Source: Streptomyces sp. NRRL WC-3742
GTDB lineage: Bacteria; Actinomycetota; Actinomycetes; Streptomycetales; Streptomycetaceae
Assembly: GCF_000720635.1 (NCBI RefSeq)
Contig: NZ_JOCF01000077.1
Location: 1-37,139 of the forward strand
Direction of reading: 5' to 3'
DNA: 37,139 bases
Part shown: positions 23,443 through 25,869 of the stretch, piece after piece
How the letters are laid out: every line of letters starts with the position of its first letter
Position numbering within the stretch: position 1 is the stretch's first letter
Translations under genes and position numbers: made by a program
Notes under the pieces: generated by a model
The model's input: only the letters and a program-made list of their open reading frames with translations
What the model was told of the DNA's origin: nothing
The model's database searches: none

Positions 23443-25869
23443 TCAGCGGTAGCGCCTGCTGGTGCTGGACCAGATCCGGGCGCCCTCCACCAACTCCCGG
23501 GTGCCGTCGAGGTACCACCGTTCGTCCGGATGGCGCCGCAGCAGCTCGGCGCGCAGGGCTTCGCTCTCCTCGCAGAGCCGGGCGACCCGGGCCCGCACCG
23601 CGCGTACGGCGCGTCGGCGGGTGCAGCGCAGGGCCCGCTGCACGGTGTGGACGGTGTTGAAGGCGGCCTCGCTCTGGCGCTCCTCCCGCTCCAGCGAGTA
23701 GAGGTCGTTGATCAGCGTGGCGGCGTCGGCGGTGGCGGCGCGCAGGCGGTGCAGCGCCGGGTCCGCGTGGAAGGCGGCGGGGGCGTCGGCGCCGTGGACC
23801 CGTTCCAGTATGTTCATGAACGGGTAGAGGCAACTGCCGTGGCGGCGCAGCCTCATGGTCTCCGCGAGGCCCAGCGAGGGCACGGTGCCGCGGGCGCGGT
23901 GCTCGGCCTCGGCGGGGAAGGTGGCCAGGCACGCCTGCCACTCGTGGGCGGCGCGGGCGCGCCAGGCGGGGGAGGCGGTGGCGCTCTGCCGCTGCCACAA
24001 CTCCCGCCAGGCGGCGGCCAGTCGGGATTCCTCCGGGGCGGCGCGCGAGCTGCCGTGGAGGGTGGCGATCAGCGGGTCGACGAGGGCGCGGGCCTCGGCC
24101 GGGCGGCGGCCCGGCGGGCCGTCGAAGCGGTCGTCGAGGATGGTGAACCAGCCGAGCACGTCGACCAGGAGGTCGAGGTCGGCGCCCCGGGCGCGGGGGA
24201 AGGCGTGCCCGATCAACTCGTGCAGGGCGTACGCCTGGTAGCCGGGCAGGTCGCCGGGTGCGAGCAGGCCCCGGCGCACCGTCCAGTCGGCGTGCCGGTG
24301 GGCGGCGTCGCCCAACTCCGCGCCGGGGCGCGGGGTCCGGGGCCTGGGGGCGGCGGGCAGCGGCGGATCGAGCGTCGTCCGGGCGGCCGGGACGGCGGAG
24401 GTCGCGGCCCCCGTGACCGGGCACCGGGAGGGCGGGGGCCCGACGGCGGGCGAGCGCGGCGCCAGCCGGACCCGCAGCCCCTGCGCCTGGACGGTGGTCC
24501 ACACCACCTCCCGGGCCCGCGCTCCCGGCACCGCCTCCGGCCGCCAGCGCCGCAGGATCGCGGCGGCCGCGACCGTCAGCTCGGCCCAGGCGAACGCCTC
24601 CCCGATGCACTTGTGCTTGCCCGCGCCGAAGGGCAGGAAGGACGTCCGTCCGCCGCCGCCCTCCTGCCAGCGCTCGGGGCGGAAGGCGAGCGGGTCCGGG
24701 TAGCGCTGCGGGTCGCGGTGGAGCGCGGTGAGGCTGTACAGCAGCTCGGTGCCGGCCGGGATGCGGTACGGGCCGAGGTCCACGGGCACCTGGGCGGTGC
24801 GCATCAGGAACGCGTTGGGCGCGTGCAGCCGCACCACCTCCTGGGTGACGCTGCGGGTGTACGTGAGCCGGGCGAGCGCCTCGGGGGTGGGCGCGGTGCC
24901 GGCGGGCAGGTGCTCGTCGAGTTCGGCGAGCATCCGGGCCTCGACCTCGGGGTGGCGCAGGAGTTCGTCGAGCAGCCAGGTGAGGGTGGTGGAGACGGTC
25001 TCGGTGCCGGCGCCGAACATGGTGATCGCCTCGGAGCGCACGTCGTCCTCGGTGAGCGGCCGTCCGGTGGCCGGGTCGGTGGCGGCGCGCAGCAGCGCGG
25101 GCAGGGTGCCGTGCTCCTGGGCGGTGTCGCGGGGCCCGCGCCCGTTGACGGCCTGGTCGACGACGCGGTTGAGCACCCGTACGGCGGCGTCGAAGCGCCG
25201 GTTGACGGGCAGCGGCAGCCGGCCGAGCGACGGGTGGGGGTAGAGGGACTGGACGATCTGGCCCTTCACGAGGTCGGGCAGGGCGCGGTGGAAGGCGACG
25301 GTGGCGTCCTCGCTGAGCCGGGCGTCGAACAGCGAGCGGGTGACGATCTCCAGGGCGAGGTGGTTCATCTCCTTGGCGACGTCGAGGACCTGGCCGGGCC
25401 GCCAGCGTCCCGCGCGCTCCTCGGTGACCTGGTGCATCACCCGCAGGTACTCGGCCATCCGGTCCTGGGCGAAGGCGGGTTGGAGGACGCGCCGCCGGTC
25501 GCGGTGCGCCTGGCCCTCGGACATCAGCAGGCCGTCGCCGAAGGCCGTCCTCAGGGTGTCCTGGACGGCGCCGCGCGGGCAGTCGTGGGCGAGGGCGACG
25601 AGCAGGGTGTGGACGAGCCGGGCGTCGGTGACCACGCAGACGGTGCGCGGGCCGAGCCGGACGCGCACCACGCCGCCGTACCGGGGCAGGGAGCCGAGGA
25701 AGCCGAGCGGGTCGCGCAGCAGGGCGGCGGCGTGCCCGATGCCGGGGAGTGCGCCGGGTGCCAGGGCGGGCAGGGCGGCGCGGACGGCGGGCGGCGTGGG
25801 CGGCGCCGGTCTCGGGGGGACGATTCCCAGCCGTTGACAGTGGAGCCTTGTCTCGGTCAGCAGGGACAT
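23443..25869 (-). CDS. Cytochrome P450 - class I terpene synthase fusion protein
   Basis: One uninterrupted 808-residue frame. Residues 30-470 are a complete P450, nearest in style to CYP170 (PGALPGIGHAAALLRDP). It has I-helix AGTET (287-291), ExxR as EVVR (344-347), FRPERW (396-401) and heme ligand Cys421 in FGAGKHKCIG. Residues 471-510 are a Pro/Ala-rich linker. Residues 510-808 are a full terpene synthase: DDRFD (579-583), NDLYSLERE (721-729), pyrophosphate-sensing Arg675 exactly 46 residues before N721, and a C-terminal RRY. Expected reaction: cyclise a prenyl diphosphate (probably farnesyl) and oxidise the product. The ATG at 25867-25869 follows AGAGG by seven bases. No ferredoxin or prenyl synthase gene is nearby. 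Product unknown. Confidence 0.93.
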   Translation of the reverse strand: MSLLTETRLHCQRLGIVPPRPAPPTPPAVRAALPALAPGALPGIGHAAALLRDPLGFLGSLPRYGGVVRVRLGPRTVCVVTDARLVHTLLVALAHDCPRGAVQDTLRTAFGDGLLMSEGQAHRDRRRVLQPAFAQDRMAEYLRVMHQVTEERAGRWRPGQVLDVAKEMNHLALEIVTRSLFDARLSEDATVAFHRALPDLVKGQIVQSLYPHPSLGRLPLPVNRRFDAAVRVLNRVVDQAVNGRGPRDTAQEHGTLPALLRAATDPATGRPLTEDDVRSEAITMFGAGTETVSTTLTWLLDELLRHPEVEARMLAELDEHLPAGTAPTPEALARLTYTRSVTQEVVRLHAPNAFLMRTAQVPVDLGPYRIPAGTELLYSLTALHRDPQRYPDPLAFRPERWQEGGGGRTSFLPFGAGKHKCIGEAFAWAELTVAAAAILRRWRPEAVPGARAREVVWTTVQAQGLRVRLAPRSPAVGPPPSRCPVTGAATSAVPAARTTLDPPLPAAPRPRTPRPGAELGDAAHRHADWTVRRGLLAPGDLPGYQAYALHELIGHAFPRARGADLDLLVDVLGWFTILDDRFDGPPGRRPAEARALVDPLIATLHGSSRAAPEESRLAAAWRELWQRQSATASPAWRARAAHEWQACLATFPAEAEHRARGTVPSLGLAETMRLRRHGSCLYPFMNILERVHGADAPAAFHADPALHRLRAATADAATLINDLYSLEREERQSEAAFNTVHTVQRALRCTRRRAVRAVRARVARLCEESEALRAELLRRHPDERWYLDGTRELVEGARIWSSTSRRYR

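What the first reader, a model, noticed from the sequence alone, without database searches (positions are those of the whole stretch)
23443..25869. Single gene fusing a complete cytochrome P450 to a complete class I terpene synthase
Seen: one 808-codon frame with P450 motifs (AGTET, EVVR, FRPERW, FGAGKHKCIG with Cys421) then terpene synthase motifs (DDRFD, NDLYSLERE, Arg675 46 residues before the NSE Asn, terminal RRY). Known: in bacteria these enzymes are normally separate neighbouring genes. CYP170A1 is a P450 with a second terpene synthase site inside the P450 fold, a different design, yet the P450 half here looks CYP170-like. Inference: the fusion could make and oxidise a terpene in one chain, with channelling across the 40-residue linker. 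I know of no well-studied bacterial example, but I cannot search.
Basis: partly seen in the sequence, partly recalled or inferred. Interest (0 to 1): 0.92.

Follow-up and report, generated by a model that had tools for sequence, protein, structure and literature searches.

The report
Fused P450–terpene synthase of Kitasatospora
One bacterial gene joins an enzyme that makes a terpene with an enzyme of the kind that oxidises terpenes, two enzymes that relatives make from neighbouring genes, and it offers a natural test of whether tethering two pathway enzymes pays off.

Summary
Window 23443-25869, minus strand, is one intact 808-codon gene: a cytochrome P450 (Pfam E 8e-71), a roughly 43-residue linker, then a class I terpene synthase (Pfam E 5e-36). 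It is no assembly artefact: 75 of 76 hits to the synthase half carry both domains, six tested motifs are present in 76 of 76 fused proteins, and I read 13 of 41 sampled genomes of the genus as holding an intact fused gene. Relatives exist as two genes: at 5 of 5 junctions seen in DNA, the P450 gene precedes the synthase gene with overlapping stop and start codons. Trees of representatives put the fused proteins in one clade (100/99 on joined domains), so one fusion of a coupled gene pair is likely. The closest named synthase is epi-alpha-bisabolol synthase of Streptomyces citricolor (59% identity), in the sister group. Best reading: the chain makes a bisabolane-type sesquiterpene from farnesyl diphosphate and oxidises it, with redox partners in trans. 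Product, oxidation and channelling are inferred. Ten open-library searches showed no characterised example, only one line on a Pseudomonas 'fused terpene synthase/P450'.

The parts
23443..25869 (-). fused gene, 808 codons plus stop: P450 - linker - terpene synthase
   Evidence: translation; Pfam; 75 homologues with both domains
24451..25782 (-). cytochrome P450 domain, residues 30-473
24997..25011 (-). I-helix motif AGTET, residues 287-291
24607..24609 (-). haem-ligand Cys421 in FGAGKHKCIG
   Evidence: 76 of 76 fused proteins keep FxxGx[HKR]xCxG
24325..24450 (-). linker, residues 474-515, low-confidence core 485-507; holds RCPVTG (482-487)
   Evidence: pLDDT; linker lengths 31-249 in 76 proteins
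23446..24324 (-). class I terpene synthase domain, residues 516-808
   Evidence: Pfam Terpene_syn_C_2 569-764; domain model pTM 0.90; Foldseek best match avermitilol synthase
24121..24135 (-). aspartate-rich motif DDRFD, residues 579-583
23845..23847 (-). Arg675, 46 residues before the NSE Asn (role as diphosphate sensor recalled)
   Evidence: column invariant in alignment A2
23683..23709 (-). NSE metal-binding motif NDLYSLERE, residues 721-729
   Evidence: N, S and E columns invariant in A2
23449..23454 (-). Arg-Tyr near the C-terminus, residues 806-807
   Evidence: both columns invariant in A2
25877..25882 (-). GAGAGG, Shine-Dalgarno-like site 7 nt before the ATG
   Evidence: sequence printed; function inferred

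Best explanation
This is a natural two-domain terpenoid enzyme. The C-terminal class I synthase ionises farnesyl diphosphate with Mg2+ bound by DDRFD and NDLYSLERE and closes it to a sesquiterpene, most likely of the bisabolane type (epi-alpha-bisabolol or a near relative). The N-terminal haem-thiolate P450 then oxidises that product, with electrons from ferredoxin and ferredoxin reductase encoded elsewhere. The gene probably arose once, in an ancestor of the Kitasatospora that carry it, from a translationally coupled P450-synthase gene pair in the same order, when the overlap of the P450 stop and the synthase start was lost. The gain is probably equal dosage and a high local concentration of a volatile intermediate next to the P450, not a rigid channel. 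Shown: one open frame, both domains with their motifs, purifying selection on both, a conserved family, two-gene relatives with overlapping stop and start, one fused clade. Inferred: coupling, substrate, product, oxidation of that product, redox partners.
For: Both domains are complete and confidently modelled. 75 of 76 hits to the synthase half also carry the P450 (only the 7993 candidates sharing most words were scored). Six tested motifs are present in 76 of 76 (loose patterns for I-helix and RY). Closest named synthase: P0088, epi-alpha-bisabolol synthase of S. citricolor, 180 of 305 identical; it groups with the unfused P0086 and P0087 (SH-aLRT 99), the sister group of the fused clade. 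A review states that the S. [quoted passage not shown] Loci L022-L026 have the P450 directly upstream in the same order with overlapping stop and start, 5 of 5. Representatives of the fused proteins form one clade in the synthase tree (SH-aLRT 87), the P450 tree (99) and the joined tree (100/99). By NCBIfam score the nearest P450s of known function are albaflavenone monooxygenase and pentalenene oxygenase. No ATG lies in the linker of 13 of 13 genes and no start codon at all in 5 of 13. The genome has six Fer4_15 ferredoxin matches, none on the window's contig (one ferredoxin family searched).
Against: I saw no assay of any fused member. 59% identity does not fix a terpene synthase product. 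The best solved-structure match of the synthase is avermitilol synthase (33-34%). A viridiflorene synthase, BAP82213.1, is listed from Streptomyces lactacystinaeus (table of PMC11430642, passages); the fused protein P0039 is from Streptomyces lactacystinicus, probably the same organism under another spelling (not checked), and I could not tell whether the two are one protein. The synthase half has about twice the dN/dS of the P450 half, so products may differ within the family. NCBIfam scores miss every equivalog cut-off listed. Eight of 13 linkers hold a GTG or TTG (three at nearly the same offset, -38 to -40), and, before that script failed, a GTG inside the first synthase helix showed in four loci, so an internal start is not excluded. 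P0120 (369 residues on a 373-kb contig) and P0081 (415 residues on a 63-kb contig) hold only part of the fusion and may be broken copies.
Confidence: 0.6

Rival explanations
1. The synthase half makes a different skeleton, for example an aromadendrene type (viridiflorene or avermitilol-like) or another sesqui- or diterpene; the rest of the mechanism is the same.
For: Nearest solved structures are avermitilol synthase and a type I diterpene synthase; NCBIfam's best synthase model is isoafricanol synthase at 163 bits; a viridiflorene synthase is listed from S. lactacystinaeus; higher dN/dS of the synthase half.
Against: The only close relative with a product name is epi-alpha-bisabolol synthase at 59%, against 33-34% to avermitilol synthase, and it lies in the sister group of the fusion.
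Confidence: 0.3
2. The domains are fused only for equal dosage and stability; the intermediate leaves and the P450 acts as a free enzyme would. No benefit of proximity.
For: Linker length varies from 31 to 249 residues, median 74, in 76 proteins, and its core is low-confidence; whole-chain pTM is 0.65 while the synthase alone reaches 0.90, so no firm domain arrangement is predicted.
Against: The fused form is kept across the sampled clade, and no clean return to two genes was seen inside it, though P0081 and P0120 may be broken copies. Flexible tethers can still raise local concentration.
Confidence: 0.35
3. One domain is a passenger: the synthase or the P450 has lost activity and the fusion persists by chance or for a structural role.
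For: Synthase dN/dS up to 0.66 in some pairs.
Against: Six tested motifs present in 76 of 76; median dN/dS well under 1 in both halves; confident models of both.
Confidence: 0.05
4. Assembly or frameshift artefact joining two neighbouring genes.
For: Two-gene relatives exist.
Against: Many separately assembled genomes carry the same in-frame joint.
Confidence: 0.01

Closest known systems
epi-alpha-bisabolol synthase of Streptomyces citricolor (G5EKN0; P0088)
   Same: Class I synthase with the same motifs; 59% identity over 305 aligned positions to the fused synthase half; in the sister group of the fused clade.
   Different: A separate protein of 313 residues. Whether a P450 gene lies beside it could not be tested here.
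CYP170A1, albaflavenone monooxygenase of S. coelicolor
   Same: Bacterial sesquiterpene-oxidising P450 (PMC10992849, passages); nearest solved structure by sequence.
   Different: 31-32% identity; 320 of the 700 bits needed. Its extra terpene synthase site lies within the P450 itself; here the synthase is a separate domain, and CYP170A1's DDLLTALLE aligns to HGTLPALLR in the window (that this stretch belongs to the second site is recalled).
Neighbouring P450 and terpene synthase genes of actinomycetes (loci L022-L026)
   Same: Related P450 and synthase (58-73% and 46-58% identity to the window's halves), same order.
   Different: Two frames with overlapping stop and start codons; no neighbour of the window gene was found beside four of the five, and only one 39% match beside L023.
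'Fused terpene synthase/P450' of a Pseudomonas cluster (strain Ps706; PMC8719888)
   Same: The same pair of activities in one protein, by that paper's one-line entry (passages).
   Different: Listed with a methyltransferase and isopentenyl diphosphate isomerase; I saw no sequence or assay; relation to this family unknown.
Self-sufficient P450 fusions such as P450 BM3 (P450-reductase) and CYP51-ferredoxin
   Same: A P450 fused to a partner in one chain (both appear).
   Different: There the partner delivers electrons (recalled); here the partner is expected to make the substrate, and electrons must come in trans.

Membership tests
Class I terpene synthase (Terpene_syn_C_2) | Pfam score over gathering cut-off | tested here: met
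   124.8 bits vs 23.7
Class I terpene synthase (Terpene_syn_C_2) | DDxx(D/E), NSE triad, sensor Arg, RY near the C-terminus | tested here: met
   DDRFD, NDLYSLERE, Arg675, RY; Arg, N, S, E, R and Y columns invariant in A2
Class I terpene synthase (Terpene_syn_C_2) | Alpha-helical class I fold | tested here: met
   model pTM 0.90; TMq 0.86 to avermitilol synthase
Cytochrome P450 | FxxGx(H/R/K)xCxG haem loop, ExxR, I-helix (A/G)GxxT | tested here: met
   Pfam 239.6 bits vs 22.8
Cytochrome P450 | Haem binding with CO-difference band at 450 nm | not testable with these tools
   needs protein
Albaflavenone monooxygenase/terpene synthase (NF051859, CYP170A1) | Curated equivalog score | tested here: not met
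   319.8 bits vs 700
CYP170 family | Over 40% identity (naming rule recalled) | tested here: not met
   31-32% to CYP170A1
CYP170 family | Second terpene synthase site inside the P450 fold (motif place recalled) | tested here: inconclusive
   DDLLTALLE of CYP170A1 aligns to HGTLPALLR in the window
Pentalenene oxygenase (NF045812) | Curated equivalog score | tested here: not met
   292.8 bits vs 800
Isoafricanol synthase (NF041624) | Curated equivalog score | tested here: not met
   162.9 bits vs 500
epi-alpha-bisabolol synthase | Close sequence relation to the named enzyme | tested here: inconclusive
   59% identity, sister group; no functional threshold known
epi-alpha-bisabolol synthase | Product epi-alpha-bisabolol from farnesyl diphosphate | not testable with these tools
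   needs assay

The most novel reading that the evidence does not exclude
A natural single-chain terpenoid assembly line in which the synthase hands its volatile product straight to the tethered P450, with the linker as a working part. In the 44 fused proteins P0002-P0046 (ordered by similarity to the window's synthase half) the cysteine-poor linker keeps a Cys-Pro element in 41 (CPx[TS] in 34), which could be a haem- or redox-sensing switch.
Probability: 0.12. Interest if true: 0.85.

Novelty: new variant of a known kind. Interest (0 to 1): 0.62.

Why it matters
Engineers often fuse pathway enzymes in the hope of channelling, with mixed results (recalled). Here evolution seems to have run that experiment: probably one fusion event, 75 proteins found with both domains, linkers from 31 to 249 residues, and two-gene sister lineages as built-in controls. 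It makes the question 'does tethering a terpene synthase to its P450 help?' directly testable, and it points to an unassigned, probably oxidised bisabolane-type terpenoid. The source names shown are mostly just 'cytochrome P450', so mining by name alone would miss the synthase.

Tried and rejected
Artefact or frameshift: rejected. Dead gene: thought unlikely (motifs; dN/dS). Membership in the albaflavenone, pentalenene oxygenase or isoafricanol synthase models: cut-offs not met. A surrounding gene cluster: none recognised. Of 20 neighbouring frames, chosen by codon composition and scanned with Pfam, the matches were transporters, regulators, a methyltransferase, hydrolases, an aminotransferase-like regulator, a LytR-type protein, a nucleotidyltransferase and a DUF; the rest had no match; no ferredoxin, prenyltransferase or second P450. 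Frames not picked were not scanned. Upstream ORF lists of two relatives were read by eye only. Internal start: no ATG in 13 of 13 linkers, GTG or TTG in 8 of 13; not excluded. tRNA and Rfam scans of the window gave nothing. Fold search of the whole chain listed only P450s, because one domain fills the list, so the synthase was folded and searched alone.

Literature: ten searches of the open library, seen as listings, some of them cut (20 of 31 papers, 20 of 24, 30 of 67). Passages were read in nine papers: PMC10301674, PMC11430642, PMC9310801, PMC10509563, PMC7192455, PMC12298776, PMC12860625, PMC8719888, PMC10992849. No paper was read whole. Not held: Yamada 2015 PNAS, a paper tried by a DOI from memory, a bacterial terpenome review. 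Nakano 2011 is known to me only as a citation. So absence from print is not shown.

Dropped before counts. Synthase tree: the 76 fused proteins were thinned to 37, P0077 was left out, six fragments (P0080-P0085) were in the tree but in neither group, and all 23 proteins P0086-P0108 counted as unfused. P450 tree: 39 of 76 fused, and 31 of the 85 proteins P0109-P0193, partial and most distant ones left out; the chosen outgroup was not one side of a branch. Joined tree: 34 fused and nine unfused pairs; six pairs were matched by strain name or contig length, and in three one or both halves came from locus DNA (L022, L023, L024). 'Unfused' in the trees means retrieved without a P450 or synthase partner domain; only L022-L026 were checked in DNA. 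The 32 loci L031-L062, which matched mainly the P450 half, were not examined for a neighbouring synthase. Genome surveys of 120 and 300 genomes of the family did not run.

Full report

It is a family. A search with the synthase half, with candidate lengths set by the whole protein, returned 76 proteins at E up to 1e-3 among the 7993 candidates scored. 75 carry both domains; the 76th is a 452-residue protein on a 1547-base contig. Names shown are Kitasatospora and Streptomyces, apart from three entries without a name. In 76 proteins (the window's and these 75) the six patterns for I-helix, ExxR, haem loop, DDxFD, NSE and RY are present in 76 of 76. Among 41 genomes drawn from the genus, own included, I read 13 with a fused gene in one open frame (G000, G001, G004, G006, G007, G008, G011, G012, G017, G018, G020, G022, G027), 2 with pieces on different contigs or at a contig start (G031, G039), 1 with two neighbouring frames (G013), and 25 with no orthologue among the matches listed (the list was cut at weak matches). 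Among 51 genomes drawn from the family, own included and 44 of them from other genera, the only fused hit was the window's own (threshold 1e-90).

Where it came from. The scan of named genome contigs returned 55 loci. I examined 23 of them, L008-L030. 12 are fused in one frame (L008-L016, L018, L019, L021). 5 have P450 and synthase in different frames side by side (L022-L026). 6 show one half at or near a record end (L017, L020, L027-L030). In all five two-frame loci the P450 comes first and its stop overlaps the synthase start: GTGA in L022, ATGA in L023 and L026, TGATG in L024 and L025. That is the usual layout of translational coupling (inference), and a small change of frame would create the fusion. 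The synthase tree (37 fused representatives, 23 unfused) needs one change of state, SH-aLRT 87; the P450 tree (39 and 31) one change, SH-aLRT 99; the joined tree (34 and 9) one change, bootstrap 100 and SH-aLRT 99. With more distant unfused relatives as outgroup, the fused clade lies inside unfused ones, so fusion looks derived. The nearest two-gene lineage is that of Kitasatospora sp. NPDC056138, in both single-domain trees and, with strain ST-888, in the joined tree.

Where it sits. Eighteen neighbours of the window gene were sought in L008-L030. The ArsR-type regulator and the family 3 glycosyl hydrolase are each found in 15 of 23 loci: all 12 in-frame fused loci and L028-L030. No neighbour was found beside L022, L024, L025, L026 or L027, and beside L023 only a 39% ABC transporter match; L022 ends just after the synthase and L026 is 3.5 kb, so little flank was seen there. 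In the fused loci, then, the gene sits at a shared chromosomal place. No redox partner was recognised among 20 neighbouring frames; six matches of one ferredoxin family lie on other contigs of the genome.

Selection and linker. For 13 fused genes (78 pairs) median dN/dS is 0.20 for the P450 (largest 0.28) and 0.44 for the synthase (largest 0.66), by simple Nei-Gojobori counts. Linkers run from 31 to 249 residues, median 74, and are rich in Ala, Pro, Arg, Gly and Thr. In the 44 proteins P0002-P0046, 41 have Cys-Pro in the linker and 34 have CPx[TS]; in the other 32, 9 and 1. The pattern CPx[TS][GA] occurs in 2 of 85 proteins retrieved as P450 without synthase, one of them annotated as partial. 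No linker of the 13 genes holds an ATG and 5 of 13 hold no start codon; 8 hold GTG or TTG, three of them at nearly the same offset, and one search printed a GTG in the first synthase helix of four loci before it failed. One polypeptide is the simpler reading, not a proven one.

What it makes. The closest synthase with a product name is P0088, epi-alpha-bisabolol synthase of Streptomyces citricolor: 180 of 305 identical (59%) to the window's domain and 66% to the unfused P0087. P0086, P0087 and P0088 form the sister group of the fused clade. A review states that S. [quoted passage not shown] I therefore expect farnesyl diphosphate as substrate and a bisabolane-type product, at moderate confidence. 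Against it: the nearest solved structure is avermitilol synthase, and a viridiflorene synthase of S. lactacystinaeus is listed in PMC11430642 (passages) while the fused P0039 is from S. lactacystinicus; I could not compare the two.

Known or new. CYP170A1 combines both activities within one P450 (PMC10992849, passages), a different design. The one printed mention of a fused terpene synthase/P450 that I found is a line about a Pseudomonas cluster (PMC8719888, passages). Ten searches of the open library showed no characterised Kitasatospora or Streptomyces fusion, but listings were partly cut and most subscription papers are outside it. I rate it a new variant of a known kind: both enzyme types are known, and so are P450 genes beside synthase genes; the conserved single-chain form, its probable single origin and its two-gene controls are the news.

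Noticed in passing
window 24409-24426 (residues 482-487, RCPVTG) and linkers of P0004-P0046: The cysteine-poor linker keeps a Cys-Pro element in 41 of 44 proteins P0002-P0046. Cys-Pro is known to me, from memory, as a haem-regulatory motif.
   Followed up: partly
P0057, P0059, P0061-P0064, P0066-P0069, P0071, P0072, P0074-P0076: Fifteen fused proteins (Kitasatospora purpeofusca and others) have very long linkers, 183-249 residues; that of P0057 contains collagen-like GPTGPTGPAA stretches.
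   Followed up: no
G000:C10:99863-101698 and G000:C8:64681-68145: The same genome has two other long frames (825 and 787 codons) with two synthase matches each and a further synthase beside the second. A two-synthase frame may be geosmin synthase; not tested.
   Followed up: no
P0120 (Streptomyces sp. 1114.5, 369 aa) and P0081 (415 aa): Partial copies of the fusion on long contigs (373 kb and 63 kb); P0120 ends in an unrelated tail. They may be frameshifted or broken copies, or contig-end pieces.
   Followed up: no
L022-L027: The two-gene pairs, and the P450 piece L027, lie in strains named Streptomyces and Saccharothrix, and the flanks seen do not resemble the window's.
   Followed up: partly
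window 23530-25887, plus strand: A 785-codon open frame runs opposite the fused gene; probably a by-product of 74% G+C sequence.
   Followed up: no
PMC8719888 (Pseudomonas strain Ps706): A fused terpene synthase/P450 is listed in a cluster with a methyltransferase and isopentenyl diphosphate isomerase; it may be an independent fusion.
   Followed up: partly
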